64,000 nt of DNA from Elusimicrobium sp. (lineage in GTDB: Bacteria; Elusimicrobiota; Elusimicrobia; Elusimicrobiales; Elusimicrobiaceae). Below the pieces are notes generated by a model, which was not told where the DNA came from, did not search any database, and was given only the letters and a program-made list of their open reading frames with translations. The position numbers and the translations under genes are program-made. The DNA lies in assembly GCA_015062115.1 (NCBI GenBank), contig SUVG01000002.1, positions 124,001-188,000 on the forward strand. Reading direction: 5' to 3'. Below, in pieces: positions 7,401 to 31,231 of the stretch; position 1 is the stretch's first letter, and each line of letters begins with the position of its first letter.

Positions 7401-7774
7401 GGGGTGCGGAAAAAACTTTCGGAGGGGTCTAAAGTCATAAAAGTAGGGAAATTTTTATCTTCTTTGGTTACTTCGTTATTAAAAAGAGGGTCACCCAAAA
7501 TTCCGCCCGGTACGAATTGGTTTACTTTGTTGGTTTGTTCCACCCCTTCGCGTACAGCGGTGCGAATTTTTTCCAGGGTGTCTTCGTCCAGGTCTGCAGG
7601 CAGTTCAAACGCATACACATAAGGCGCTACCGCCGGAGTGGGGGGGTGCACATAGCCTTGTAATTTTTTGGCAATTAAACGGGCATCATGCTCCGTCCCG
7701 TCCGTAACGAGCGTGTAACAAAGAGAACCCGCTTGCTGGTCCAGGCGGGAGATAATATCCCAGTTGTTAATCAT
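4487..7774 (-). CDS. Large DnaA-type AAA+ protein with Pro-rich linker (1095 aa), not a replication initiator
   Basis: Residues about 700-920 form a DnaA/Hda-type AAA+ module: Walker [10 protein letters not shown] near residue 745 and Walker [12 protein letters not shown] near 805, both close to the DnaA versions, followed by sensor-type segments ([12 protein letters not shown]). The DnaA domain IV helix-turn-helix that binds the origin is absent. In its place is a 160-residue alpha/beta domain (about 935-1095) that I do not recognise. The N-terminal 100 residues form another small unrecognised domain. Between them lie about 500 residues of acidic and Pro/Ala-rich linker carrying a near-identical motif twice, near residues 436 and 516 ([12 protein letters not shown]), plus weaker TF-x-L-like copies. 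The gene overlaps deoC by 4 bases and precedes two lipoprotein genes. It is probably a cytoplasmic ATPase acting as a scaffold or regulator; function unknown. Confidence 0.8.
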
Positions 7775-18817: not shown

Positions 18818-18890
18818 AGCCGAGGATGGGAGTCGAACCCACAACCTACGGTTTACAAAACCGTTGCTCTGCCAGTTGAGCTACCTCGGC
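18818..18890 (-). tRNA. tRNA-Thr (anticodon TGT)
   Basis: The minus strand folds into a standard cloverleaf: acceptor stem GCCGAGG/CCTCGGC (7 bp), D stem GCTC/GAGC, anticodon stem ACGGT/ACCGT with loop TTTGTAA (anticodon TGT, reading ACA), and a T arm with GGTTCGACTCC. The 3' CCA is not encoded. A run of T follows directly and may serve in termination. Confidence 0.95.
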
Positions 18891-18944
18891 GAAAAACTTT
18901 CATATATTCTAGCATTTTTGCGTTATTTCTCCAAGTTGTCATTA

Positions 18945-18953
18945 TGCTACAAT
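18945..18953 (+). promoter_or_regulatory. Extended -10 promoter of the exported TldD-like pair
   Basis: TGCTACAAT is a good extended -10 element 18 bases before the start codon, which itself has an AGGAGGA Shine-Dalgarno. No clear -35 box is seen. Transcription would start about 10 bases before the ATG. Confidence 0.55.
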
Positions 18954-18971
18954 ACAAGAATAGGAGGAATT

Positions 18972-20663
18972 ATGAAAAAAATCTCTCTTTTCTTTCTTAT
19001 TTTTATGTTAATGGCTTTACCGGGGGCAGCCACTTTATGTGATATTTCTGCCGAGGAGCCGATCCGCCTTATGGAGGCGGAAATGAAACGCGGTTTTAAG
19101 ACCTATAAAAAGCAAAAGCCGTCCATTTATTATTTATCCTACTCCTACCACGAACTTCTGTTGCGTAATTTGTGGGTGTATGCGGGAGGCGTAGCAAGCA
19201 AAAGCGAACAAGAAAGGCACGCCCTCAGTGTGCTTGCCCGAGCCGGAAGCACTAAAATGGATAATTCCCGCTACTTAAAAGGAGAAGCGAAAAAGGAGTA
19301 TGTGGCGTTTGCAAATATGCCCTTTGGGGAAAAGCCTTTTTCCATCGTTTTGTGGGGGGCTACGGAACGTGCAATCAAGTCGGCGCAAGAGGGCCTGAGT
19401 CAGGTTCAAAGTAATAATCAGGTGGCTTCCAAACGGGCTGACGATTCTCCTGATTTTGTCATGCCTCCCGTTTCTGTTTATTGCAGAAATGAAGAATATA
19501 CCCCCATAGATATGCAAAAAATAGAGGATTTGTTAAAAGAAGCCTCTTTGGCTGTCCTCGGGAACAAAATAGTACTGGGTTCTTCTTTTGTTTTTTCTCA
19601 AAAACAAGGACATACATACTTCCTTGATTCCAACGGAACCAAGTTAAAAACTCCCGTCAATTTGGGCCGTATTTCCTACGAAGTGTGGGGGAAAAAAGCG
19701 GACGGAGCCTATATTGAAAGGGGCAATTCCTACGATATCATTTCTCCCGAAAGTGTTCCGTCCCTTGAAACTTTAGTGGCAGATGTAAAAAAATCGTTGG
19801 CGGAACTGGAGGCCCTGTTTCACGCTCCGGATGCCGAACCTCTTACGGCTCCGGCTATTTTGAAAAACAAGGCTATGGGTGTTTTCGTGCACGAAATTTT
19901 GGGGCACCGTGTGGAAGGACACCGCCAGAAAATAGACTCTTTCGGCAAAACTTTTACCGATAAGTTGGGGCAACAAATTATGCCTTCGTTTTTAAGCATT
20001 GTGGACGACCCCACCATGGCTTATTTTAAGAATATCCCGTTGCGCGGTTTTTATGAGTACGATGACGAAGGCGTAAAGGCGCAACCCGTTACGATTGTTG
20101 AAAACGGTGTGCTTAAAAACTTTTTGATGAACGCCAGCCCGATTAAGGGTTTCCCGGTTTCTAACGGCCACGGCAGAGCTTCTCTCGGAAATAGCCCGGT
20201 GGCTCGCATGGGGGTAACCCGTCTTGTGTCTTCTCAAAGTGTTTCGTATGAAGAACTGGAAAAAATGTTGATTGAAGAAATCAAAAAACAAGGCAAGCCG
20301 TATGGTTTTATTATTGAAGATTTATCCGGCGGATTTACCCAAACCGATTCTTTTGCTCCGCAAACATTTAAGTTGGAACCGACTTTAGTTTACCGTGTTT
20401 ATCCGGACGGTAAAAAAGAATTTGTCCGCGGGGCAGATTTAGTAGGTACGCCGCTGGTAAGTTTCAGCAAAATATTAGCCACTGCCGATGACGACGATGT
20501 CTTTAACGGAAATTGCGGGGCAGAGTCCGGTTGGGTGCCGGTGTCTGCCATTGCCCCCAGTGTGCTATTGGAGTCCATAGAGGTGGAAAAAACGGCGAAA
20601 AGCAGCAGCAAGCCTCCGCAACTGCCGTCCCCGTTTTCGCTGCCTGAAAGGGGGAACAAATGA
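18972..20663 (+). CDS. Exported TldD-like metalloprotease, catalytic member
   Basis: TldD proteins, with their partner TldE/PmbA, are zinc proteases that trim modified peptides such as microcins. This 563-residue protein has the TldD zinc motif HEILGHRVEGHRQ (HExxxH with His307, Glu308 and His312). The cysteine that acts as third ligand in TldD is probably Cys515 in NGNCGAESG. Unlike known TldD, which is cytoplasmic, it begins with a clear signal peptide (MKK, hydrophobic to about residue 20, GAA end), so it should act outside the cytoplasm. I chose the ATG at 18972 because of its strong Shine-Dalgarno; a longer reading would run back through the tRNA. Its stop overlaps the start of the next gene by 4 bases. 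Confidence 0.85.
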   Translation: MKKISLFFLIFMLMALPGAATLCDISAEEPIRLMEAEMKRGFKTYKKQKPSIYYLSYSYHELLLRNLWVYAGGVASKSEQERHALSVLARAGSTKMDNSRYLKGEAKKEYVAFANMPFGEKPFSIVLWGATERAIKSAQEGLSQVQSNNQVASKRADDSPDFVMPPVSVYCRNEEYTPIDMQKIEDLLKEASLAVLGNKIVLGSSFVFSQKQGHTYFLDSNGTKLKTPVNLGRISYEVWGKKADGAYIERGNSYDIISPESVPSLETLVADVKKSLAELEALFHAPDAEPLTAPAILKNKAMGVFVHEILGHRVEGHRQKIDSFGKTFTDKLGQQIMPSFLSIVDDPTMAYFKNIPLRGFYEYDDEGVKAQPVTIVENGVLKNFLMNASPIKGFPVSNGHGRASLGNSPVARMGVTRLVSSQSVSYEELEKMLIEEIKKQGKPYGFIIEDLSGGFTQTDSFAPQTFKLEPTLVYRVYPDGKKEFVRGADLVGTPLVSFSKILATADDDDVFNGNCGAESGWVPVSAIAPSVLLESIEVEKTAKSSSKPPQLPSPFSLPERGNK

Positions 20664-22225
20664 AGAAAATTCTTTTTATTTTGATTAGTCTTGTAAACAT
20701 TTCCGCTTTAGAGGCGGTTGCTTTGCCGGACAATGTGTATTTTCGTGCCATGAAGGACGAAATGGATCGTACCATGAAGGAATACCGGATAGAAAAAGGC
20801 CCGGAACTTTTTTACATGGCATATAATCTAAAACTTTACCAAAGAGTAAAAGCGGGGGGCCTTTTCGGGAAGAGAGTCTCTTTTAATCAAAGTGAAGAAT
20901 TGCAAGTCGCGGCCCAGTCTAATGTGGGAAGTTACAAAAATGATTCCCTGGGGTTTTTCTCGGACGATAGTATGTACGGGGAGGTATTTCCTTCTCCGCG
21001 AAACTATGAGGGGATTCGGCAGAATTTGTGGCGTGTGTCGGATAGCGAAATTCTTAAACAACAGAAGAATTATGAGGAAAAACAAGCATACAAAAAGCAA
21101 AAACAGATTAAACAGGATAACTTTTATGATTTTGCTCCCGTGAAATCGAGTTCTTACGTGGAGGAACTAAAAGAATTTACGCCTCCTTCTCGAGCGTACT
21201 TGGAAAACCTGGTGGAAAAACTGTCTGCCCGAGGAAAAGACTATTCGTTTATAGAACATTTTGAAGCCTCTGTTTTGGTTTCCAACACCACTCATTTTTT
21301 CTTAAATTCAGAGGGCAGTTTCAGTCAATACAGCACCCCGGAAGTTATGATAGTGTTTCTAGGGAAAGTCCGCCATGAAAAAGGATATGTGTTTCAGCGC
21401 CAAGAAAGAATCTCTTTTTCCGCTTTAACACCGGAACGCGAACCTTTATTAGAACAAAAAGCCGATGAATTTTTACAAAAATTATTGGTTTTTCATAAAG
21501 CTCCTATGGCGGATGCTTATATCGGCCCCGTATTATTTAAGCCGGCGGTTGCGGGTTCTCTGATTGCATCGGGGCTGGATTTGTCAAACATTACTCCCTT
21601 TTTTAACAGTCAGCACGACACAGACCCTTCGGCCAGCCCGTTGCGTGATAAAGTAGGTATGCGGATTATGTCTCCCGGAATCAATGTTTATGACCGCCCG
21701 CTTTTGCGGGAATATAAGGGGAAGCCGGCAATCTTTTCCCCGATGGACGATGAGGGAGTTTTGGCACAAGAGTTATTATTGGTTAGTAAAGGAAAGTTAA
21801 AAAATCTGCCGCTTTCCCGTCGTTCCGGTAAAAGAGGAAAAAGCAACGGACATGGTTTTGGGTTTTTGCGTCAGCCGCGCGAAGATACTACTACCCTGGT
21901 TATAGAGCCGGAAAATCCTCTTTCCCAGAAAGAATTGGAAGAGAAATTATTGACGCTTTGCCGCGAACAGGAACAGGAATACTGCTATATTGCCCATGAC
22001 GGTAGCTTTTTTGAGCGCATTGATATGAAATCCGGCGCGCGGGAGTTTGTTTTAGGGCTAAATATGAAATATTCAGCCACGCGGGCGTTACGGGATATTT
22101 TGGCTGCGGGTGATGATTTTGACTTAAAAAACGGAAGCGTCGTTCCTTCCTTGCTGGTAGATGAAGTGGAACTGGAGCCTAAAGAGATGATTCCCGAACG
22201 GAAACCGCTTATCCCTCGCCCTTAA
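20660..22225 (+). CDS. Exported TldD-like protein lacking the zinc motif (TldE/PmbA-like role)
   Basis: This 521-residue protein has a signal peptide (MKKILFILISLV to about residue 22) and shares landmarks with the protein before it: the SPMDDEGV / YDDEGV turn, the NGHG motif followed by an arginine-containing loop (FGFLRQPRE), and the C-terminal run RDILAAGDDF. At the place where its neighbour has the HExxxH helix it reads KPAVAGSLIASGLD, so it cannot bind zinc in the same way. A Lys/Gln-rich segment (about 135-155) is an insertion. A coupled catalytic and non-catalytic TldD-like pair mirrors the TldD-TldE heterodimer of other bacteria, but here both are exported. Substrate unknown. Confidence 0.75.
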   Translation: MKKILFILISLVNISALEAVALPDNVYFRAMKDEMDRTMKEYRIEKGPELFYMAYNLKLYQRVKAGGLFGKRVSFNQSEELQVAAQSNVGSYKNDSLGFFSDDSMYGEVFPSPRNYEGIRQNLWRVSDSEILKQQKNYEEKQAYKKQKQIKQDNFYDFAPVKSSSYVEELKEFTPPSRAYLENLVEKLSARGKDYSFIEHFEASVLVSNTTHFFLNSEGSFSQYSTPEVMIVFLGKVRHEKGYVFQRQERISFSALTPEREPLLEQKADEFLQKLLVFHKAPMADAYIGPVLFKPAVAGSLIASGLDLSNITPFFNSQHDTDPSASPLRDKVGMRIMSPGINVYDRPLLREYKGKPAIFSPMDDEGVLAQELLLVSKGKLKNLPLSRRSGKRGKSNGHGFGFLRQPREDTTTLVIEPENPLSQKELEEKLLTLCREQEQEYCYIAHDGSFFERIDMKSGAREFVLGLNMKYSATRALRDILAAGDDFDLKNGSVVPSLLVDEVELEPKEMIPERKPLIPRP

Positions 22226-22241
22226 TAAGGCTTATATTTAC

Positions 22242-22279
22242 AACCCCCCCGCGAGAGGTTTTCTCCTGCGGGGGGTTTT
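22242..22279. terminator. Bidirectional terminator
   Basis: A stem of CCCCCCGC with GCGGGGGG, flanked by AA/TT and closed by a GAGAGG-to-TCTCC inner pairing, is followed by TTTT on the plus strand. It lies between the converging TldD-like pair and the six-gene minus-strand operon and can serve both. Confidence 0.85.
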
Positions 22280-22298
22280 ATGTGGCGTAAAAATGTTG

Positions 22299-23267
22299 TT
22301 AAAAGTTATTTTCTAACAGTTTTGCGGCTACTTTGCCGGTAAAGGAGTAGGGGTCGTCATGGGAAAGTTTTTCCAACTGTTGGCGTGCGGAAACAGTTTT
22401 GCCCAACCGATATTCATTAAGGGCTTTGATAAAAAGGGCGAGCGGGTCTTCCGGTTCTGCGGTTAAGATATATTGAACGGTTTGCAGGGAAGCCTCGTAA
22501 GATTTTTCCTGATAGAGCCACAGGGCTTTTTGTGCCAATAAATCCTTACGCTCAGGGGCCAATACCAAGGCTGTGTTCAAGTCCTTAAGGGCTTCCTGTG
22601 TTTGGGAAAGGCCGTAACGGGCTTTGGCACTTAGGAGCCAAAAGTCCGGGTTTTCGGGTTCCTGGTTTAAGGCCAAAGTAATGTTTTGGAAGGCTTTAGA
22701 AAACTCGCGTTGTTTTAAGAAGGTGTTTGCGTAGCGCGCCCGATAAATGGGGGTTGCGTTGGGCTCTTGTTCAAAAAAGCGGTCGTACAGAACGCGGGCT
22801 TTGGAGTAAAAACCTTGTGCGGCATAGTTATCGGCTTGGCCGGAAAGGGCCGCCAAGTTGTTCGGTTCCTCTTTCAATACTTGCCCGTATAGTTCCATAG
22901 AACGGTCTGACAGGCCGGTGCGTTGATATAGTTGGGCAGCTGCCAGTAATAACGGTATATTATCCGGGTGGAACTCCAAGGCTTCCAAATAGACTTCCAA
23001 TGCTTTTTCCGGGTTGTCTAAATGTTCGTAACTAAGCCCCAACAAGCGGTAAGCGCGCACTTCGCGTCGTTTCACATTTTTTGTTTTATAAATGTACTCG
23101 GTCAGTTCTACCACGGCTTGCTCATATCTTCCTTCGTTAAAACAATCGCGCGCCCGTGTGTATTCTTGGCGGTCTCCCACCGGGGCCAAACCCAAAAAGC
23201 CGGCCCGGCAAGCGCCTAAAAGAAGGCTTAATAAACAAATAAAAAATACTTTACGGTTTAAGTACAT
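22299..23267 (-). CDS. TPR-repeat lipoprotein
   Basis: This is a predicted lipoprotein (lipobox L-G-A-C, Cys20) made almost entirely of tetratricopeptide repeats: about eight TPR-like helix pairs between residues 35 and 320, with repeats such as RAYRLLGLSYEHLDNPEKA. TPR lipoproteins generally hold envelope protein complexes together. The ATG at 23267 lies 17 bases inside the end of the patatin gene, so translation is probably coupled; a TTG four codons earlier is possible but less likely. It is the last gene of a six-gene envelope operon. No specific ortholog recognised. Confidence 0.75.
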   Translation of the reverse strand: MYLNRKVFFICLLSLLLGACRAGFLGLAPVGDRQEYTRARDCFNEGRYEQAVVELTEYIYKTKNVKRREVRAYRLLGLSYEHLDNPEKALEVYLEALEFHPDNIPLLLAAAQLYQRTGLSDRSMELYGQVLKEEPNNLAALSGQADNYAAQGFYSKARVLYDRFFEQEPNATPIYRARYANTFLKQREFSKAFQNITLALNQEPENPDFWLLSAKARYGLSQTQEALKDLNTALVLAPERKDLLAQKALWLYQEKSYEASLQTVQYILTAEPEDPLALFIKALNEYRLGKTVSARQQLEKLSHDDPYSFTGKVAAKLLENNF

Positions 23268-24213
23268 AAGGCAACGCAAAGAGCAGGAGATCTTCCTGCA
23301 GTTTCTCCAATTTGTGGTGAGTTTCCAACATGCCTACTTCTCCGGCTTTGTGGAGTTTGTCCATTTCCAAAGTTCCGATATCCAAAACCCTGCTATTGAG
23401 TACAAAGTTGGCTTTTTGGGCAGATTCTTCAATCATGGCTGCCCCGCGTACATCTCCTACGCGCAGTAAGTAGGCCGCTACACTTTGGGGGGTTTTGGAA
23501 AAAAAGTCCGGCGGGGTAATGGACGCTAAAATATAGTCTGCCCCCATAGATTTTACAGATTCTACCGGCAGATAATCTACCACGGCTCCGTCCACAAGCG
23601 CACGGTGGCGGTATTCGACGGGTTCAAATACCCCCGGCAAGTTCATGCTGGCCCGTACGGCAATGGCAAGCGGGCCCGAATCAAACACTACCCGTTCCCC
23701 GGTTTTAATGTCCATGGCGGCACAGGTAAACGGGATACGCAAATCTTCAAATTGCATATCGCCCAATTGTTCGTGGAAAAAATTGAGTAAATTGGAAGAG
23801 GACGGGAGCCTTTTGGCAAACAGAAAACGGAAAAGCCCCATTAAATCAAAATCGGGGGTGATATTGTCCAGGGTGAGGTGCTCGCTGATGTCCCACAACC
23901 GTTCGGTAGGCAAACCTGCCGCATAAAGAGACCCGATAACCGAACCCATGGAAGTACCGGAAATCATATCGATAGGGAAGCCGGAATTATCTAATGTTTC
24001 CAAAACTCCCACATGGGCAAAACCCCGTACTCCGCCGGCGGAAAGAGCCACCCCCACTTTGGGGCGTTCTTCTTTGGGAAGAGAAACAAACTGCTGCCAC
24101 AAAAAATCGCGCAACACATCGTCATCACTCTGTATTTCCAGAGCACCGGAAGGTTGCACGGCCCATAGGGCAAGCAGCAGACAGCCCGCCAAACGGCGGA
24201 GAAAATTTTTCAT
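23251..24213 (-). CDS. Exported patatin-like phospholipase (RssA/NTE type)
   Basis: Patatin-like enzymes are lipid acyl hydrolases with a Ser-Asp dyad. The 320-residue protein shows the oxyanion loop SAGGVRGFAHVG, the nucleophile elbow GTSMGS (Ser88) and the catalytic DGAVVDYLP (Asp208). A signal peptide covers about residues 1-24, so it should act on periplasmic or outer-membrane lipid. The start shares one base with the tolC-like stop. Some secreted patatins are fused to an outer-membrane barrel that exports them; this one has no barrel of its own, but its operon has a separate barrel protein and a TolC-like protein. Phospholipase activity is inferred from intact motifs. Confidence 0.88.
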   Translation of the reverse strand: MKNFLRRLAGCLLLALWAVQPSGALEIQSDDDVLRDFLWQQFVSLPKEERPKVGVALSAGGVRGFAHVGVLETLDNSGFPIDMISGTSMGSVIGSLYAAGLPTERLWDISEHLTLDNITPDFDLMGLFRFLFAKRLPSSSNLLNFFHEQLGDMQFEDLRIPFTCAAMDIKTGERVVFDSGPLAIAVRASMNLPGVFEPVEYRHRALVDGAVVDYLPVESVKSMGADYILASITPPDFFSKTPQSVAAYLLRVGDVRGAAMIEESAQKANFVLNSRVLDIGTLEMDKLHKAGEVGMLETHHKLEKLQEDLLLFALPYVLKP

Positions 24214-25508
24214 TATAAATCCTGGCCAATGGCCCACTCTAAGCGGGCTTTAGATACATGGTTTTGACGGACGGCATCTAAATAGTTTTGCGCCGCCGCG
24301 GAATAAGCACCCAACGCTTCCAACGGAGCCGTGCCTGTTTTAGGGGAAGAATCGGCTTTTTTCAGTAATTTTTTCAGTTCGTTATAGGTGTTTTGGCGAA
24401 CCAATACCTCTTCTTGCCAAAAGAGCATATCGGCAAAATTTTCGGCCACTTGAATACGTATTTTATCTTCAATGGCGGCACGCCGTAAAGAACTTTTCTT
24501 TTGTTCCGCTTTCTTTTGCGCAATCTGTTCCGAAATGTTGTAGGGAATCGGTAAACGCACAGCCAAAGAGATTTGTTTGTTTACTTCATCTAAACTATCG
24601 GTTCCTAACTGTTCAAAGGAGCCGTTCAAAATAATATCGGGGTAGCGTTTGGAGAGGGCTAAATCCATGGCGATATTATCCGCTTCCAACGCATACAGGG
24701 CTGATTTCAATTCCGGGCGGAACTCCAAGGCCCACAGGTTGAGGTGGGGGAGGTCTCTATCCGTATGAACGGGAGAAAAATCCCCTTTAATGGTAATGTT
24801 GGAATTGAGTTCTTTGTTTAAGCTGACGAGCATGGCCAGCTGGGCTTTTTTAAGCAGTCGGGCAGCATCGCTTTGTTTGGTTTTAAGGTCGGCCAGCAAG
24901 GCATGAATTTGTATTTGTTGCCACAAATTGCCGCCGGGGCGTTTGTACCAAGAATCTGCCATAGTGGCTATTTCGTTTGTCAGTTTGGCATATTCCTGCG
25001 CGTACAAAAGGCCGTAGAAAGATTGTTTGATGTCCAAAATCGCCGCGCTTTTGACGATTTCGTAGCGGCTTTGGACTTGCTTTAAGTGGGCCCGCGCCAT
25101 TTTAAGCGTGTTATTGATTCTCCCGCCGGAATAGATATATTGCGTGGCGGTAATTCCCACTCCGTAAAATTGGTCTTTCCCGCCCAGATATTCGCTTCCC
25201 GGCAAAAAGCGGTTGGCTACAGCATCGGGCAATACCATGGGATAGTCCAAATCGAACCAAGTAGCGGTGCCTTGGAGAGAAAATTGCGGCAGATAACGAA
25301 ATTTTGCCTCGTTTACTTTTTGCTCTGCAATGATAATTTCCTGTTGGGCGGTGAGAAATTCGGAATTATTTTCCAAGCCCAAGCGAATGGCATTTTCCAA
25401 GGTTAAATTGTCGTTAATCAGGCTGGAAAATTTAAGCCCGTATTCTTTTTGCGCAAAAACGGTGCCGGCGCAACACAACGCAAGCACAAGCGCAACTAAT
25501 TTTTTCAT
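24213..25508 (-). CDS. TolC-family outer membrane efflux protein
   Basis: This 431-residue protein with a signal peptide (about 1-20) belongs to the outer-membrane efflux (OEP) family. It has two helical-hairpin halves, each beginning with a family-like segment (LTLENAIRLGLENNSEF near the N-terminus and LRAALEADN-like residues in the second half), and a tripartite-pump-style barrel segment (FYGVGITATQYIYSGGR). TolC proteins form trimeric channels that normally work with an inner-membrane pump and a periplasmic adaptor. Neither is encoded nearby, so its partner must lie elsewhere or the protein has a dedicated role with the neighbouring patatin and HAMP proteins. Confidence 0.88.
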   Translation of the reverse strand: MKKLVALVLALCCAGTVFAQKEYGLKFSSLINDNLTLENAIRLGLENNSEFLTAQQEIIIAEQKVNEAKFRYLPQFSLQGTATWFDLDYPMVLPDAVANRFLPGSEYLGGKDQFYGVGITATQYIYSGGRINNTLKMARAHLKQVQSRYEIVKSAAILDIKQSFYGLLYAQEYAKLTNEIATMADSWYKRPGGNLWQQIQIHALLADLKTKQSDAARLLKKAQLAMLVSLNKELNSNITIKGDFSPVHTDRDLPHLNLWALEFRPELKSALYALEADNIAMDLALSKRYPDIILNGSFEQLGTDSLDEVNKQISLAVRLPIPYNISEQIAQKKAEQKKSSLRRAAIEDKIRIQVAENFADMLFWQEEVLVRQNTYNELKKLLKKADSSPKTGTAPLEALGAYSAAAQNYLDAVRQNHVSKARLEWAIGQDL

Positions 25509-25519
25509 ACAACCCCCGT

Positions 25520-25984
25520 TTACTTCTCTTTATTTTTATTGATTTCCGCTTCTACGCGGTCCATCATTTTGTTAAATTCGGCTTGCAGTTCGGTCAGTTG
25601 ATCGCCTTGGCGCAAGCGTACCCGTTGGGAAAAATCACCTTTGGCGATTTCTTTGCAGGTTTGTTCAAAGCGATACACGGGCCCTGCCATTTTGTGAGAC
25701 AAAATAGCCGATATCAATACCACAAACAACAGGTAGATGGCTATTTTATAGAAAAAACTGGCCGCAATGGGGATAAACTCGTCGTAAATGGGTTGAACCA
25801 GTACGGGGTAGGAATCAAACAGATCATTTAAGGTTGCGGTCAGTTCAAAAGTCATAATAGCCAACCCGCACAGCACGCTTAAAATAATCATCATCATGTA
25901 GCGCAGTTGCAACGCTTTTTTGATGAAAATCGTGCGGCGTTTGAATTGCGGGTGTTTGTTCGGGGGAACGGTCGGTTGGTTCAT
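25520..25984 (-). CDS. Membrane protein ending in a HAMP domain, no output domain
   Basis: This 154-residue protein has a basic cytoplasmic N-terminus, a first membrane segment (about 30-50), a short periplasmic loop of about 25 residues, a second segment (about 75-97) and then a HAMP linker (about 98-150) with the motifs AGPVYRFEQTCKEIAKGDFSQR and a helix ending in KNKEK. HAMP domains normally pass signals to a kinase, cyclase or chemotaxis domain; none follows here. It may signal to another protein or act as a structural clamp. It sits 9 to 11 bases from its neighbours in the envelope operon. No specific function is known to me. Confidence 0.8.
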   Translation of the reverse strand: MNQPTVPPNKHPQFKRRTIFIKKALQLRYMMMIILSVLCGLAIMTFELTATLNDLFDSYPVLVQPIYDEFIPIAASFFYKIAIYLLFVVLISAILSHKMAGPVYRFEQTCKEIAKGDFSQRVRLRQGDQLTELQAEFNKMMDRVEAEINKNKEK

Positions 25985-25993
25985 AAGGCCTCG

Positions 25994-26722
25994 TTAAAAA
26001 TGGGTTACATAGCGGATTTGTAAAATGCGTTCGCTTTCGCTTCCACGGCCGATGCGGCGCACGGCTGCATCTAAGGCTAAAGAGGGGTGGAGATAAAAAC
26101 GGGCCCCCAAATTCAGGCGGGAATCGCGCATATTGCGGATATTATCCCACTCGGCAAGCAGGCCTACTTTTTCGGCCAGGTTGTAATAAAGACCGGTGAA
26201 CATATACAGTTCGCTCCAGTCAAAATCGGAAAAATTGATACCGGCAGTGGCGTGGAAACCCGGTACGAAAATTTCGCGTGTGAGGGTTAAGTAGCCGCCT
26301 TTGCGGTCGTCCAGATAGTGTTTGGTATCTCTGTATTTGCGGGTTTCGTCGTAACCGTACCCATAGCGGCGGCCGTCGTAGCCGATGGCAATGGCAGGCA
26401 AATAGAGGCTTCCGTCGTAAATTTTCCATTTGGCTTGAAAATCCGGATCCAACACGCGCACCGAGTCGGACGAACCGAGCAGTTCATGCGCGGCAACGGA
26501 TACCCCGATGTTTAAGCGGGGGAATACGCCGAAATCCAAACTTTCCATGACGGTTCCGTGGTCGTAAGTGCGGGTAAGGAAGGAAACTTGGTAACGGTCA
26601 AAAGTTTCAGCCGTGGGGACATCAATGACGGTCGTTTCCACACTGATAGGGTCTCCCTGGGCGGCAAAGGCCGCCAAAGGCAAGAAGAAAAGTGCGGCTA
26701 AAAGAGAAATTTTCAATTTCAT
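25994..26722 (-). CDS. Predicted outer-membrane beta-barrel protein, 242 aa
   Basis: A signal peptide (about 1-20, AFAAQ end) is followed by alternating hydrophobic and polar strands rich in Tyr, Arg and Gly (for example YLTLTREIFVPGFHATAG and RLNLGARFYLHPSLALDAAVRR). The chain ends in RYVTHF, a terminal phenylalanine being typical of outer-membrane barrels. The strand pattern loosely resembles YjbH-type and other small barrel proteins, with about 10 strands. It lies 17 bases after the first lipoprotein gene of the operon. The barrel prediction rests on composition and the C-terminal residue; the function is unknown. Confidence 0.7.
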   Translation of the reverse strand: MKLKISLLAALFFLPLAAFAAQGDPISVETTVIDVPTAETFDRYQVSFLTRTYDHGTVMESLDFGVFPRLNIGVSVAAHELLGSSDSVRVLDPDFQAKWKIYDGSLYLPAIAIGYDGRRYGYGYDETRKYRDTKHYLDDRKGGYLTLTREIFVPGFHATAGINFSDFDWSELYMFTGLYYNLAEKVGLLAEWDNIRNMRDSRLNLGARFYLHPSLALDAAVRRIGRGSESERILQIRYVTHF

Positions 26723-26739
26723 GTTAATTATCTCCCAAG

Positions 26740-27294
26740 TTATAAGAAAGTGCGGACATCTTGCACTTCGGGTTTAGTGATGTAGCGGACGTTATGCAAA
26801 TAGACGCCTTCGCGAGCGGGCATAAAGTCGTTGCGATCGCGCGGAAATTCTACATCTAAAATGCCTTTTTCCAAACGGGAAGTAGAGGATACCACCGCTT
26901 TATGCCAGCGGTCTGTGCGGTCTTGATCCAGGGGCTCTTGGGGGTTCCAATAATTGCGGAGCACCACCGTGCCTTTGGTAATCGGGTCAGCCGAACCCAT
27001 GGCCGCCGTTTTTAAGATGACATCTTCCGTCCATACCACTTTGCCGCTACAGGGGCCGTTGATAAATTTTACTTTGTAGCGGGGGTTATCGTCGGACGGG
27101 CGTTTCTTTAGGTCTGCCAAGGAATAGAGGGCATAAGGTTGGCCTTCGTGTTGGCAGGCGGCAAAAACGTGGGTGTTCAAAAAGCGTTCGTAATCTTGTT
27201 TGTTATCCGTGCGGTTGTAGGGGGTTTTTTCAGAGTGGCACCCGGCAAGCAATGCCACGGAACAAATTAAAAAAAGGCTCAGCAGTTTTTTCAT
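26740..27294 (-). CDS. Lipoprotein of unknown function, 184 aa
   Basis: The N-terminus is a lipoprotein signal with lipobox L-A-G-C (Cys19). The mature part (about 165 residues) is hydrophilic with several predicted beta strands (RYKVKFINGPCSGKVVWTED, GILDVEFPRD, GVYLHNVRYITK) and two further cysteines (about 47 and 82) that might form a disulfide. I recognise no family. It is the first gene of a six-gene operon and has a good AAAGGAG Shine-Dalgarno and an upstream TATAAT box. Confidence 0.7.
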   Translation of the reverse strand: MKKLLSLFLICSVALLAGCHSEKTPYNRTDNKQDYERFLNTHVFAACQHEGQPYALYSLADLKKRPSDDNPRYKVKFINGPCSGKVVWTEDVILKTAAMGSADPITKGTVVLRNYWNPQEPLDQDRTDRWHKAVVSSTSRLEKGILDVEFPRDRNDFMPAREGVYLHNVRYITKPEVQDVRTFL

Positions 27295-27352: not shown

Positions 27353-27358
27353 ATTATA
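27353..27358 (-). promoter_or_regulatory. -10 box of the six-gene envelope operon
   Basis: A perfect TATAAT on the minus strand lies about 58 bases before the first start codon. No good -35 box is seen 16-18 bases upstream. The leader between the box and the gene is GC-rich (alternating CG), unlike the surroundings. Confidence 0.45.
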
Positions 27359-27401
27359 CCCGTTTTTTTACGGAAAAGGGAAAAAGTTTTTTGTTTTCGG
27401 A

Positions 27402-27434
27402 TAAAAAAATCCCCGCCCGAGTAACAGGGCGGGG
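27402..27434 (-). terminator. Terminator after the anchored-pair genes
   Basis: On the minus strand CCCCGCCC (27427-27434) pairs with GGGCGGGG (27411-27418) and is followed by ATTTTTTT. It lies 22 bases after the stop of the 680-residue protein gene and separates it from the six-gene operon. Confidence 0.88.
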
Positions 27435-27456
27435 AAAAGCGGAACTGAAAAGCCGA

Positions 27457-29499
27457 TTAGTTGCGTTGATAAGTTCCTACATCTGTGCGGCTTTCTCGCA
27501 GGTTATCAGTATTTTCTTTATCGCCTTTAAGCTCGTCGGGGGTGGAGGTACCTCTTTTGAAAGAAGATTCCATTTTTGCCCGCAGCTCTTCTTTTCCGAA
27601 ATGCTGTTCAAGTGCTTCGTGCGCTTGTTTGCGGAGGGTGAGATTGTAGGATATATCGTCCGAGATTTCTTTTGCCCTGTCTATACTGGAAATGGGTTTC
27701 TCTCCGGAGCTTTCAGAGATTGCAACGGCATTTTTTCCAATGGCGGGGGATAAGCCTAAACCAATCAGCGTTGCGCCGGTTTTAGCGGTAGCAGTGTAGG
27801 CGAGGGTAGTTTCGGTTGCGGTGTTTTTATCCCGTGCCATTTCTCTGTTTTGCCTGCCCCAGGCTTGGAGGTCTTCTTGCGTATAGGCTACATAAGCGGG
27901 GGAGAAATTTTGGGCAAATTCAATTTCTTGTTGAATTTGTTCGGGGGTTTTCCCTAATTCGGCCAGTTTTTCAGGTAATGCTTGGATATATTCTTCCCGT
28001 ATTTGGGCATAGCGGTTTAACGGATCCCCTTTGAAAACAACATTTCCGGCCATATCCACGCTTTCTTTCAAAAAGTGATCCGGTTGGTCGGTTGCGGCCA
28101 CCCAAAAACAAGAGTTTTTTTCGCAATTGGCTTTAGATACCATGAATTGATACATTTGTTGAGCGACAAAACCGGACTGCTTTGCCAGATAATTTTTTTG
28201 AGCTTCGGGATCGGGATCGTTTTGCAATCCCTCACCATCCACTAGATTTTCCTGTAATCCTTGGGAAAATTTTTCTATATCCATTTCTTGCCCGTAAACA
28301 ACCGTTACGGGAAATCTGTAGTTTTTTCCGTTATCGAACTCAGGATATTTTTTGGCATTTTCCCGTCTTACTTCTTCTTTCTTTTTTTCATCAATGGGGT
28401 TTGGACCTTTAGTGGCGCAACTTACACTGTTATGAGATTTGAGAGATTTGTTTCCTCCGCAGCTCAGCGTTTCTATCAAACTGGGAGTGGCATTTTCCGG
28501 TTCTTCTTTTCCTTGTTGCACAGCCAAGGTTTCTTGTTTTACACTTTGCATTGTTTGTCTTATAAAAGCGCGTTGTTCTCCGGTGAATTGTTGGATAGCT
28601 TTTTGTTGTTCCGGTGTGTACGGAGGGGGCCCGAAACGTTCTTCAATGATTCTTTGGATATTTCCTTCATATTTTTCTTCCGGATAGAAAAGGGATAAAA
28701 CCTTACTTAAGATTTCGTTTTCATTTTCGCTATCGGCATTTTCTTCCTTATTTGTGCCGTTATCCCCGTCGTAGGAAATGTTGGGCATATTCATATCCGG
28801 CATGCCGGCGCGTTTGAATTGGCGCGGGTTCTTGGCCGATTCACGCTCTCCCTGTGCATAGGCCAGGCGGGCGGCTTCTTCGTCCGTCCAGTCCGTATCT
28901 TCCAAGGAGTAAGGGTCGTCAAACCCGAAGAATTGTTTAATGGGGTTAAAAATGCGGGCCAGTTTGGAGTCCGGCACGCGTTTGGTTTGCGGGTTGATAG
29001 CTACCGGGGTGAAACGGGCGGCGCGTTCGGCGCGGACATAGTTATCATACGCATCCCCCTTGGCGCTGATTTCGTGCATACCGCGGGAGGTGCCTTCCGG
29101 GGCTACTTGCGGAGCTAGCACCCATTCATCTTCGTAATCGCCAAACAACAGACCGCCGCCTTCCCCGCCGCCTGCTTGGGGTGTTTCTTCGGTAAGGGGG
29201 GAACCAGCAGCTCCGCGGGCATCAGCCAGCATTTCTTCGTTTCCTGCCAAGGCATTTTCGTTTGTGTTTTGCGCGGCGTTTGCGCCCGGGTGGGCGGAAC
29301 CTTTTTTGGTAAATACGGACGCAATCCGATTGACCAGTTCCGTCAACGGATTGGAAGTAAAAATTTGAGGGGTGGCTTGTTGGGCTGATTCCCCCGGTTT
29401 TTGGTTAACGGGTTTGTTGCCCATAAAAAACGGCAACGATAAAAAGAGCAACACCGCTACACCGAGCGAAATACCGACGATTTTAATAGTTTTTTTCAT
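27457..29499 (-). CDS. Membrane-anchored protein of unknown function, paralog A (680 aa)
   Basis: One N-terminal membrane segment (about 7-26) with a basic start anchors a long hydrophilic chain, most likely in the periplasm. Just after the membrane comes PQIFTSNPLT-x-LV-x-RI (44-59), then a low-complexity Ala/Gly/Glu part and the motif W-V-L-A-P-Q-x-x-P-E ending GMHE (126-143). Both are shared with the next gene upstream, paralog B. A third shared block is a helix LSLFYPEEKY near residue 270, followed by Gln-rich helices, and a fourth is FPVTVVYGQE. Four cysteines in two clusters (SC-GG...SC and NC-EKNS-C) suggest disulfides and support an extracytoplasmic location. I recognise no domain. 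It has an AAGGAT Shine-Dalgarno and lies 43 bases after paralog B. Confidence 0.72.
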   Translation of the reverse strand: MKKTIKIVGISLGVAVLLFLSLPFFMGNKPVNQKPGESAQQATPQIFTSNPLTELVNRIASVFTKKGSAHPGANAAQNTNENALAGNEEMLADARGAAGSPLTEETPQAGGGEGGGLLFGDYEDEWVLAPQVAPEGTSRGMHEISAKGDAYDNYVRAERAARFTPVAINPQTKRVPDSKLARIFNPIKQFFGFDDPYSLEDTDWTDEEAARLAYAQGERESAKNPRQFKRAGMPDMNMPNISYDGDNGTNKEENADSENENEILSKVLSLFYPEEKYEGNIQRIIEERFGPPPYTPEQQKAIQQFTGEQRAFIRQTMQSVKQETLAVQQGKEEPENATPSLIETLSCGGNKSLKSHNSVSCATKGPNPIDEKKKEEVRRENAKKYPEFDNGKNYRFPVTVVYGQEMDIEKFSQGLQENLVDGEGLQNDPDPEAQKNYLAKQSGFVAQQMYQFMVSKANCEKNSCFWVAATDQPDHFLKESVDMAGNVVFKGDPLNRYAQIREEYIQALPEKLAELGKTPEQIQQEIEFAQNFSPAYVAYTQEDLQAWGRQNREMARDKNTATETTLAYTATAKTGATLIGLGLSPAIGKNAVAISESSGEKPISSIDRAKEISDDISYNLTLRKQAHEALEQHFGKEELRAKMESSFKRGTSTPDELKGDKENTDNLRESRTDVGTYQRN

Positions 29500-29542
29500 A
29501 AGGGATCCTTTCTATGGTTAATTTCTAATAGTTTATAAGGTA

Positions 29543-31174
29543 CTATTTGTGATTCCGAGCGTAATTCGTTCCTACAACACTTAAAGGATTTTGGATCTTT
29601 TCCAATGCTTGCTGGAGTGCCTCTTTCGGGTCATAAAAATTGATGTTTCCGTTGAGAGCCATGCCAATAAAGGATCCCTCAAAGGTGCCATCGTAATCAA
29701 GAGTAGCATCTCTCTCTGCCTGTTCACCCGATCCCTCAGCCAGTTCTGTTGTGTCTTTATTGAATTCCTCAGAAAGATTCAAGAGGGAGTCTCCATTTCT
29801 AGGATTAACATTGATCGATTTCCGTCCTTCAGACGTCCAAGAAATAGCGGAATCGTTCACTGTTTCCCCATAGATGAGACCTGGGGTAACAATTTCTACG
29901 GATTTATATGGTATGCCTTGCATTTCTCCTTCTACATGTGTAGGATCTTTGGCTCCTTCAGCGCCTTTTTCCTCGTTTTCAAGATGTTGCCAAAAGCGAG
30001 AAATAACAGTTTTCGAAGTAGACAGCATGGAATTCGCACTTGAGGAGATTGCCTCCCACGTGGTCGCTTCCTTCCCCGCAGTTTTCGAAGTAGACAGCAC
30101 GAGATCCGCACCTGAGGTGGTTCCCTTCCCCGCGGCCTCTACTGCTGCTGCTACTCTTTGTAGCGTTGCAGTGTTAGTAAGGCCCATTTTCGTCAAACGA
30201 ACTTTTCCTTCTTCTTCTTTAGAGACAATAGTTATCGGCAAATCTATCGTTTCCTTCCCTTCTCGTTTGGCGGCACGAACATAATTACCCAAATAATCTT
30301 TCGCGGGCGGAGGCGGGGGCTCTTGCGAATCTAACATGCGCATGATATCTTCCCATTGGAGGCGGCGGAATTCCTTAATTACCTGTTCCTTTTTCTCTTT
30401 AATAAAAGCCTCTTTTTCTTTTAACGAAGCAGGTGTAGCCGGAACTAAACCGAATTTAACACTAGCATAATCTTCAACCAGTTTGGCTAATCTACGTTCG
30501 GGGTAAACAACATCCATGAGTTCTTTGAGGGCTTTTTCCGTCTCGCTGAGCGGGGCTTGTGTTTTGGTCGGTTCCGGGGCGTACCGTGCGGGCTTGGGCA
30601 ATTGCAGATTTGTATTGGCCCGGGCCAACAAAAGCGGTTCTTTTTGCGCCGAGAAAGAGGCGTTTTCTTCCGTCGGAGAGACAAGCGGCAAGGCTTGCAA
30701 CGGTTGTTCCGTTGCTTGCATCTCGGCAGATTGGGGCAGTTCCTCGTCGGTGTTGACCTCGTGCATACCTTTGACGCCCATATCTTCGGGCGAAATTTGC
30801 GGGGCAATCAACCAGTTCCCGTCGTCCTCTCCTTGCGGCAGTTCAATCGGTTCGCCGGGGGCATCTTCCTGCGACGGAAGTGTTTTTAACAGAGCGGCAC
30901 GGTAATTGGTGGGGGCAAGTTTCCTTTTTTCCTGCATGCGCGCTACCGCCAAGCGGCGTTTTTCCCGTTTTTTATCCCACTCGGTTTGCAGAGCATTTAC
31001 AATGCGTTTTACTAAAGTGGTAAGCGGGTTTGAAGTAAAAATTTGCGGACGGGGCCGGGCCTGCGCCGCAGGGACGGCGGACGGCGGAGGGGTGGTTTCC
31101 AAAAACGGAAGAAGTACAAAAATAATGCCGAGAATAAAAACCAATACAAATAAAAAACCCATCAGTTTCTTCAT
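29543..31174 (-). CDS. Membrane-anchored protein of unknown function, paralog B (543 aa)
   Basis: This protein has the same plan as its downstream neighbour: a membrane segment (about 5-24), the juxtamembrane motif PQIFTSNPLT-x-LV-x-RI (43-58), the W-L-I-A-P-Q-x-S-P-E...GMHE motif (121-139), the helix MDVVYPERRL and the strand DLPITIVSKEE. In between are Pro/Gln/Glu-rich linkers. The second half differs: it holds a 24-residue imperfect tandem repeat with core M/VLSTSKT, then a region rich in Gly/Glu. It has no cysteines, unlike paralog A. I chose the ATG at 31174, preceded by GAGG, instead of an in-frame start 14 codons earlier, since it begins the membrane anchor. Own promoter TTGAAA-17-TACACT upstream. 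No function known. Confidence 0.72.
   Translation of the reverse strand: MKKLMGFLFVLVFILGIIFVLLPFLETTPPPSAVPAAQARPRPQIFTSNPLTTLVKRIVNALQTEWDKKREKRRLAVARMQEKRKLAPTNYRAALLKTLPSQEDAPGEPIELPQGEDDGNWLIAPQISPEDMGVKGMHEVNTDEELPQSAEMQATEQPLQALPLVSPTEENASFSAQKEPLLLARANTNLQLPKPARYAPEPTKTQAPLSETEKALKELMDVVYPERRLAKLVEDYASVKFGLVPATPASLKEKEAFIKEKKEQVIKEFRRLQWEDIMRMLDSQEPPPPPAKDYLGNYVRAAKREGKETIDLPITIVSKEEEGKVRLTKMGLTNTATLQRVAAAVEAAGKGTTSGADLVLSTSKTAGKEATTWEAISSSANSMLSTSKTVISRFWQHLENEEKGAEGAKDPTHVEGEMQGIPYKSVEIVTPGLIYGETVNDSAISWTSEGRKSINVNPRNGDSLLNLSEEFNKDTTELAEGSGEQAERDATLDYDGTFEGSFIGMALNGNINFYDPKEALQQALEKIQNPLSVVGTNYARNHK
30007..30150 (-). repeat. Imperfect 72-base tandem repeat inside paralog B
   Basis: A 21-base stretch at 30007-30027 recurs exactly at 30079-30099, a shift of 72 bases (24 codons), with further partial matches downstream of each copy. 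It encodes two copies of a segment with core LSTSKT and appears to be a recent in-frame duplication. Confidence 0.8.
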
Positions 31175-31231
31175 ACACAACCTCAAAGAAAGAAAAGTAG
31201 CAAACCGAAGACACACTCGTCTATGATTAGT

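What the first reader, a model, noticed from the sequence alone, without database searches (positions are those of the whole stretch)
22299..27294. Six-gene envelope operon with TolC-like channel, patatin, HAMP protein and barrel
Lipoprotein, beta-barrel, HAMP membrane protein, TolC-like channel, exported patatin and TPR lipoprotein lie with gaps or overlaps under 20 bases and share one promoter and terminator. No pump or adaptor is present for the TolC-like protein. The set spans the inner membrane, periplasm and outer membrane and could be an undescribed lipid-handling or export system.
Basis: inference. Interest (0 to 1): 0.55.

Follow-up and report, generated by a model that had tools for sequence, protein, structure and literature searches.

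The report
TolC-like channel paired with phospholipase
Most sampled members of a little-studied bacterial phylum keep side by side the genes for a TolC-like outer-membrane channel that seems to have lost its pump-docking tip, an exported phospholipase and an exported repeat protein; they may tend outer-membrane lipids, and the other three genes of the reported operon joined later.

Summary
The six genes are real, on the minus strand at 27294-22299, gaps 9-17 bases or overlaps 1-17. The genome is an Elusimicrobiota MAG. All six stand together in 31 of 33 sampled members of its family, but the set is a nested assembly. The old unit is three genes: TolC-like channel, patatin, TPR protein. By my sorting, channel and patatin orthologues occur together in 100 of 119 phylum genomes (98 within 2 kb), are both missing in 17, and stand alone in one genome each. 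Around 58 out-of-phylum patatins no such channel was found. G030 lacks exactly these three genes but keeps HAMP and barrel. The channel has the TolC/OMF fold, yet it is the only one of five OEP proteins in its genome without a nearby adaptor gene. Its hairpins are shortened and a tip glycine motif is nearly gone (3/50 and 2/50, against 20/20 and 18/20 in paralogues, 19 of them adaptor-linked). The patatin resembles PlpD (1e-71). MlaA is absent from 118 of 119 genomes. Best guess: an outer-membrane phospholipid-handling triad. Linkage is well supported; the mechanism is inferred.

The parts
24213..25508 (-). TolC-family outer-membrane channel (431 aa), core gene 1; no adaptor or pump gene beside it
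   Evidence: Pfam OEP 2.5e-32; AlphaFold2 pLDDT 85; VIA Z 26.5-29.6 to TolC chains, 375-381 residues aligned; orthologue in 100 of 119 phylum genomes by my sorting
23251..24213 (-). Exported PlpD-type patatin phospholipase (320 aa), core gene 2
   Evidence: Pfam Patatin 1e-31; closest solved relative PlpD 5fqu, E 1e-71 for the family profile; nucleophile Ser and Asp invariant in 25 of 25 aligned
22299..23267 (-). Exported TPR protein (322 aa; lipobox here), core gene 3, overlaps patatin by 17 bases
   Evidence: Pfam TPRs; follows channel and patatin in 45 of 50 gene-called channel loci and in 30 of 30 f1 loci checked
25520..25984 (-). Protein with two hydrophobic segments ending in a bare HAMP domain (154 aa); neighbour, not part of the ancestral unit
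   Evidence: Pfam HAMP 1.7e-7, no output domain; hydropathy; beside the channel in f1, f2, f7, f8 and in none of f3-f6
25994..26722 (-). Small outer-membrane beta-barrel (242 aa); neighbour; near-universal in the phylum
   Evidence: 115 of 119 genomes; model of about 12 strands; fold like FapF/KdgM, Z about 17
26740..27294 (-). Small lipoprotein (184 aa) found only in family f1
   Evidence: 33 of 119 genomes, all f1, within 3.5 kb of the channel in 33 of 33; lipobox pattern in 17 of 18 relatives
24897..24959 (-). Channel residues 184-204: periplasmic tip 1, docking glycine motif absent
   Evidence: [YFHQ]xxG in 3 of 50 channels of this family against 20 of 20 paralogues
24303..24365 (-). Channel residues 382-402: periplasmic tip 2, shortened; the window and close relatives keep a G-x-x-x-LEAL stretch, a possible remnant
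   Evidence: [YFHQ]xxG in 2 of 50 against 18 of 20; sequence
27353..27358 (-). Perfect -10 hexamer TATAAT, candidate operon promoter
   Evidence: weak -35, not listed by the scan
27410..27435 (-). Terminator-like hairpin after the preceding gene
   Evidence: folded (-20.9 kcal/mol for 27400-27445)
22245..22275 (.). Hairpin between the convergent operon end and the TldD/PmbA-like gene
   Evidence: -26.4 and -25.1 kcal/mol for the two strands of 22226-22298

Best explanation
The functional core is a phylum-specific triad: a TolC-family outer-membrane channel that has lost its adaptor-docking tip motif, an exported PlpD-type patatin, and an exported TPR protein. Shown by computation: conserved linkage, largely joint presence and absence, OMF fold of the model, loss of tip motif and hairpin length, conserved patatin catalytic residues, no adaptor gene nearby. 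Inferred: the patatin hydrolyses glycerophospholipids on the periplasmic side of the outer membrane; the TPR protein holds it on the periplasmic mouth of the channel trimer, where a pump adaptor would otherwise dock; the channel is the outer-membrane anchor and perhaps the exit for lysolipids or fatty acids. This would be outer-membrane phospholipid quality control in a phylum that almost wholly lacks MlaA. In the window's family the triad is probably co-transcribed with a housekeeping barrel, a HAMP protein and a family-specific lipoprotein that came next to it later.
For: Of 119 phylum genomes, by my sorting, 100 have both channel and patatin orthologues (98 within 2 kb on one contig), 17 neither, 1 patatin only (G085), 1 a disrupted channel fragment only (G075). 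Channel-patatin-TPR are consecutive in 45 of 50 gene-called channel loci, median gaps 3 and -14 bases, in three contexts: after argH or argG, after HAMP with dapF behind, and in the f1 operon (names checked). In G030 the triad is missing and HAMP's stop abuts dapF's ATG; in G017 only patatin pieces match between argH and lysA. Own genome: five OEP proteins, four within about 4 kb of adaptor genes, this one not. Hairpins typically 114+109 residues (down to 95+86) against about 121+115 in 20 paralogues; tip glycine motif 3/50 and 2/50 against 20/20 and 18/20; the equivalent glycines are needed for pump function in MdsC (PMC4069162, passages). Patatin nearest to PlpD, whose patatin domain is periplasmic and whose deletion raises phospholipids (PMC11116518, abstract and section 9). 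MlaA in 1 of 119 genomes.
Against: No direct evidence of contact between the three proteins or of lipid activity. Conserved order can be inertia: in many families the triad sits in a conserved arginine/lysine gene chain. Channel and patatin are apart in G008 and G117, and G085 has patatin with no channel found. TPR was not found after patatin in L158 and L163. The window's genus keeps a possible tip-2 glycine (GTAPLEAL), so docking may not be wholly lost there; the tip patterns were chosen after seeing the alignment. An unlinked adaptor could still use the channel. MlaA is also missing from genomes that lack the triad, so it does not track it.
Confidence: 0.42

Rival explanations
1. The channel is an ordinary shared TolC, docking to unlinked RND or type I adaptors as E. 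coli TolC does; patatin and TPR are independent periplasmic proteins kept near it by inertia.
For: OMF fold. E. coli tolC is itself unlinked to its pumps (recalled). Adaptor-family and RND matches are present in 25 of 25 genomes searched. A possible tip-2 glycine stays in the window's genus.
Against: In the own genome each of the other four OEPs has its own adaptor within about 4 kb. Tip motif lost and hairpins shortened and variable in length. Largely joint absence with patatin.
Confidence: 0.17
2. Export route: the channel releases the patatin, or products it makes, to the cell surface, so the triad is a small secretion system for a lipolytic enzyme.
For: Co-inheritance of channel and enzyme; hydrophobic N-terminal segment on 45 of 47 patatins.
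Against: No inner-membrane energy source is linked; a folded 35 kDa enzyme passing a TolC duct from the periplasm has no precedent known to me (recalled). The related PlpD patatin domain stays periplasmic (PMC11116518, abstract).
Confidence: 0.13
3. One reading: all six genes form one trans-envelope lipid or export system.
For: All six together in 31 of 33 family members; plausible single transcription unit.
Against: Barrel absent in G013 and G094 with the other five present; HAMP and barrel present where the triad is missing (G030); HAMP and barrel not beside the channel in f3-f6; no best barrel match within 20 kb of the channel outside f1, f2, f7, f8 (read by eye); lipoprotein only in f1.
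Confidence: 0.13
4. No functional link: the triad is a relic of a conserved chromosomal segment and the proteins act separately.
For: The triad sits between argH and lysA/dapF in many families.
Against: Linkage survives in three different contexts, including f1 where the arginine and lysine genes are not beside it, and the triad is missing as a block while neighbours stay.
Confidence: 0.12

Closest known systems
TolC / outer membrane factor (OMF) family, Pfam PF02321
   Same: Fold of the model: four strands and two long helical hairpins per chain
   Different: Shorter, length-variable hairpins; tip glycine motif nearly absent; no adaptor gene nearby in the own genome
PlpD / FplA patatin autotransporters (type Vd)
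   Same: Same patatin subfamily (1e-71 to PlpD); in PlpD a periplasmic patatin domain is tied to an outer-membrane barrel (PMC11116518, abstract)
   Different: No Omp85 barrel in the chain, which is about 320 aa; the linked outer-membrane protein is TolC-like instead
Mla pathway / OMPLA outer-membrane phospholipid control
   Same: Proposed role only: clearing phospholipids at the outer membrane
   Different: No MlaA in 118 of 119 genomes; different proteins; OMPLA and the rest of Mla were not searched
YbjP, TolC-binding lipoprotein of E. coli
   Same: An accessory outer-membrane lipoprotein on TolC (PMC13095208, abstract)
   Different: No sequence comparison made with the TPR protein or the first lipoprotein

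Membership tests
TolC/OMF family | OEP domain and TolC-like fold | tested here: met
   2.5e-32; TolC chains Z 26.5-29.6, rmsd 3.4-4.0, 375-381 residues; other OMFs score nearly as high
TolC/OMF family | Conserved adaptor-docking tip glycines | tested here: not met
   3/50 and 2/50 channels of this family against 20/20 and 18/20 paralogues; possible tip-2 remnant in the window's genus
TolC/OMF family | Trimeric assembly | not testable with these tools
   Only a monomer was modelled
Tripartite efflux or type I secretion system | Inner-membrane transporter and periplasmic adaptor linked with the channel | tested here: not met
   None among the six genes and their tested neighbours; all 5 TIGR01730 matches of the own genome lie beside the other four OEPs. 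An unlinked partner is not excluded; HlyD-type adaptor families were not searched
Patatin phospholipases | Oxyanion glycines, GxSxG serine, catalytic Asp | tested here: met
   Invariant Ser and Asp in 25 of 25; GxSxG in 46 of 47, DG[GA] in 47 of 47, [GA]GGxR in 45 of 47 (L163 reads ATSMG)
PlpD / type Vd autotransporter | Patatin passenger of the PlpD subfamily | tested here: met
   E 1e-71
PlpD / type Vd autotransporter | C-terminal POTRA and Omp85 barrel in the same chain | tested here: not met
   Gene-called patatins of 301-352 aa; only the Patatin domain in the window protein
Mla pathway | MlaA outer-membrane lipoprotein | tested here: not met
   1 of 119 genomes, not the own one
HAMP sensor proteins | Output domain (kinase, cyclase, MCP) after HAMP | tested here: not met
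   HAMP spans residues 95-145 of 154; no further domain
YjbH exopolysaccharide barrel | Pfam YjbH above cut-off | tested here: not met
   19 bits against a cut-off of 24, partial

The most novel reading that the evidence does not exclude
A whole phylum has turned a TolC channel away from pumps: with its docking tip lost, the trimer is a fixed outer-membrane port to which a PlpD-type phospholipase is fastened by a TPR protein. It would be a pump-independent lipid-clearing or lipid-export machine that stands in for the MlaA-based pathway.
Probability: 0.33. Interest if true: 0.8.

Novelty: new variant of a known kind. Interest (0 to 1): 0.6.

Why it matters
TolC-family channels are known as the exit duct of energised pumps. 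A phylum-wide branch that appears to have lost pump docking and is co-inherited with a phospholipase would show a second use of the duct. It would also give a testable answer to how bacteria without MlaA police phospholipids in the outer membrane. The triad is small enough to be cloned whole and tested in laboratory E. coli.

Tried and rejected
Considered and rejected or left open. (1) The six genes as one ancestral machine: rejected. (2) A functional tie to arginine or lysine synthesis: the neighbours are housekeeping genes and the triad keeps together where they are not beside it (f1), so left aside. (3) Repeats in the region: only short two-copy matches and two imperfect inverted pairs, not followed. 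(4) TPR core length against channel hairpin length: Spearman -0.40, n = 27 loci, p 0.04, related sequences; not relied on. (5) MlaA absence: it is also absent where the triad is missing, so it is background only. (6) Paper searches: TolC+patatin+operon+outer membrane+TPR, Elusimicrobi+TolC, YjbH+outer membrane+barrel, PlpD+patatin+type Vd, Elusimicrobi+patatin, TolC tip-to-tip, Elusimicrobium minutum+outer membrane, outer membrane factor+patatin+phospholipase. No listed title or abstract start describes this triad; most hits were not opened. Of PMC8277102 I searched the held part for five tip terms and found none; of PMC3391258 I saw passages.

Weak points of the counts. In the gene-called set 5 of 50 channel loci were not scored as triads: in L158 and L163 no TPR was called after patatin; L179, L184 and L186 are stretches where my longest-ORF caller chose wrong frames, as in L177 and L188, which gave no channel anchor at all. 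Whole-genome coordinates put channel beside patatin in these seven. The tip regular expressions were chosen after seeing the alignment. In one search (and the lipoprotein places) places were typed by hand; strand was not part of that test. For HAMP only 61 of 98 and for barrel only 49 of 115 best places were typed; the rest I compared by eye (HAMP as far as listed). Weak matches were judged not to be orthologues by strength, frame length and context. The 20 paralogues were picked by hand from PF02321 matches of eleven genomes; 19 have an adaptor match within about 4 kb, L318 has none listed and lies at a contig start, and L309 is incomplete (365 aa of a 443-aa frame). Absence of other families from the fold lists is no evidence.
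Full report
What is there. Six ORFs lie head to tail on the minus strand: lipoprotein 26740-27294, barrel 25994-26722, HAMP protein 25520-25984, TolC-like channel 24213-25508, patatin 23251-24213 and TPR protein 22299-23267. Gaps are 17, 9, 11, -1 and -17 bases. A terminator-like hairpin after the preceding gene (27410-27435), a TATAAT at 27353-27358 and a hairpin between the convergent ends (22245-22275) make a single transcription unit plausible. Families: OEP, Patatin, HAMP and TPR clear; barrel weak; lipoprotein unknown.

Where it comes from. The window is part of contig 2 of a 1.44 Mb, 95.6% complete genome. Loci of related genomes carry names such as Elusimicrobia bacterium and Elusimicrobiaceae bacterium; the contig of L227 (UBA1202) has the same length, 481,330, as that of G025, a genome of the window's genus. 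So the phylum is Elusimicrobiota.

Conservation. I searched 119 phylum genomes, drawn evenly from a larger group. Any match at E 0.001 or better: channel 109, HAMP 98, barrel 115, patatin 105, lipoprotein 33, the last in family f1 only. Some channel, HAMP and patatin matches are paralogues. After sorting, 101 genomes have a patatin orthologue; in 98 of them the channel lies within 2 kb on the same contig. The exceptions are G008 (channel beside argH on one contig, patatin and TPR on another), G117 (channel beside argH with no patatin match in the rest of its 7.1 kb contig, part of a patatin at another contig's end) and G085 (88% complete, no channel found). G075 has a disrupted channel fragment beside argH at a contig end and no patatin. 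Seventeen genomes have neither orthologue: G001, G017, G030, G039, G043, G051, G054, G083, G087, G089, G091, G097, G100, G105, G109, G113, G115. They belong to five families (f2, f4, f9, f15, f16). Nine of the seventeen have no channel match at all and the other eight only weak ones (5.6e-13 or weaker). The weak channel matches in G030 and G039 lie beside adaptor and RND genes, so they are paralogues.

Gene order. I fetched 60 stretches and called genes. Of 50 loci with a called channel, 45 show channel-patatin-TPR in a row on one strand, median gaps 3 and -14 bases. Directly upstream of these 45 stands HAMP (27), argH (16) or argG (2). In many families the triad lies between argH and lysA, dapF or dapA. 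In f2, f7 and f8 it follows barrel, phosphofructokinase and HAMP. In f1 it follows lipoprotein, barrel and HAMP. Names of argG, argH, lysA, dapF, dapA, dnaE, phosphofructokinase and accA were checked on one representative each. In the eight barrel-anchored stretches from other families (L204-L211) accA follows the barrel in 8 of 8. Family counts: f1, channel-patatin and HAMP adjacent in 33 of 33, barrel within 5 kb in 31 (not G013, G094); f2, 11 of 12 for all three; f7 and f8, 6 of 6 for all three; f3 to f6, channel-patatin 3 of 5, HAMP and barrel 0 of 5. In f1 the lipoprotein is within 3.5 kb of the channel in 33 of 33, and the TPR follows channel and patatin in 30 of 30 loci checked and in the remaining three genomes (G013, G042, G044; L200, L191, L190). 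So all six stand together in 31 of 33.

Natural deletions. In G030 the three core genes are missing: HAMP's stop codon is followed at once by dapF's start. In G017, a 1.1 Mb genome, only pieces matching the patatin lie between argH and lysA. In G013 and G094 the barrel was not found and the other five are in place. So channel, patatin and TPR behave as a unit; barrel and HAMP do not belong to it. All nine f9 genomes without the pair are of genus g19, which is probably the termite-flagellate endosymbionts described in PMC11257099 (passages); this assignment is mine.

Outside the phylum. Twenty-two are Elusimicrobiota-like; two of these carry other labels (L217 'Clostridia', L221 'bacterium'). 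All 22 have the TPR and 21 have the channel; the last, L222, has the contig length of G008's patatin contig. Of the 58 others, 0 have a channel match; 5 have a TPR match, each on the opposite strand; and 51 lie in stop-to-stop frames of 1,700 bases or more, long enough for PlpD-type proteins.

The channel. Its model (pLDDT 85) matches TolC chains at Z 26.5-29.6 and other OMFs nearly as well. The own genome has five OEP proteins; one further weak match (5.6e-7) lies inside an adaptor frame. The other four stand within about 4 kb of an adaptor match, two of them also with an RND pump; this one does not. Compared with 20 paralogues from eleven genomes (19 with an adaptor match within about 4 kb), channels of this family have shorter hairpins: typically 114 and 109 residues against 121 and 115, down to 95 and 86. 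At the tips the pattern [YFHQ]xxG occurs in 3 of 50 and 2 of 50 of them, against 20 of 20 and 18 of 20 paralogues; 27 of 50 carry a W/F-containing pattern at tip 1 that 0 of 20 paralogues have. In the aligned column the tip glycine is present in 20 and 19 of 20 paralogues and in 0 and 1 of 50. In MdsC the equivalent glycines are conserved and needed for pump function (PMC4069162, passages). The window's genus keeps a GTAPLEAL-like stretch at tip 2 that may be a remnant.

The patatin. The Ser and Asp of the catalytic dyad are invariant in 25 of 25 aligned. The family profile matches PlpD at 1e-71; the next solved patatins are at 9e-12 or weaker. PlpD's patatin domain is periplasmic, and its deletion raises many lipids, phospholipids among them, in P. 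aeruginosa (PMC11116518, abstract and section 9). TPR relatives carry a lipobox pattern in 7 of 49, six of them in the window's genus, so lipidation is not a general trait.

The barrel. The model (pLDDT 83) has about 12 strands and resembles FapF and KdgM (Z about 17, 11-12% identity). That does not define a function.

How it may work. Co-inheritance and lost docking motif suggest that the periplasmic mouth of the channel serves patatin and TPR instead of an adaptor. The patatin would cut phospholipids at the inner face of the outer membrane; the channel would anchor it and might release products. The phylum sample has MlaA in 1 of 119 genomes, which leaves room for such a system but does not prove it. 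No step of this mechanism has been tested in the laboratory.

Verdict. Observation confirmed. Interpretation partly supported: a real and apparently undescribed system is likely, but its core is three genes, not six. My eight paper searches (listed under Tried and rejected) showed no description of it; most papers of subscription journals are not in that library.

Noticed in passing
window 25994-26722 and relatives: The small barrel family occurs in 115 of 119 Elusimicrobiota genomes, including genomes of 0.6-1.3 Mb, with one match in each but G070 (two fragments); in eight stretches from other families it stands before accA. It may be a near-universal outer-membrane protein of the phylum.
   Followed up: partly
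window 27457-31216: Two adjacent large proteins (680 and about 543-557 aa) fall into one sequence cluster and match no Pfam or NCBIfam family at the thresholds used.
   Followed up: no
window 18864-22225: Two TldD/PmbA-like proteins, overlapping by 4 bases, with signal-like N-termini (by eye); unusual for a family known as cytosolic (recalled). They converge on the operon.
   Followed up: no
window 4487-7774: A 1095-aa protein with a DnaA ATPase domain in its C-terminal half (residues 708-864).
   Followed up: no
family f10 genomes, e.g. G024, G006: Relatives of the HAMP protein give 4 to 12 matches per genome; many are proteins of similar small size, some lie in longer proteins.
   Followed up: no
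L217: A contig labelled 'Clostridia bacterium' carries the Elusimicrobiota triad; probably mislabelled or misbinned.
   Followed up: no
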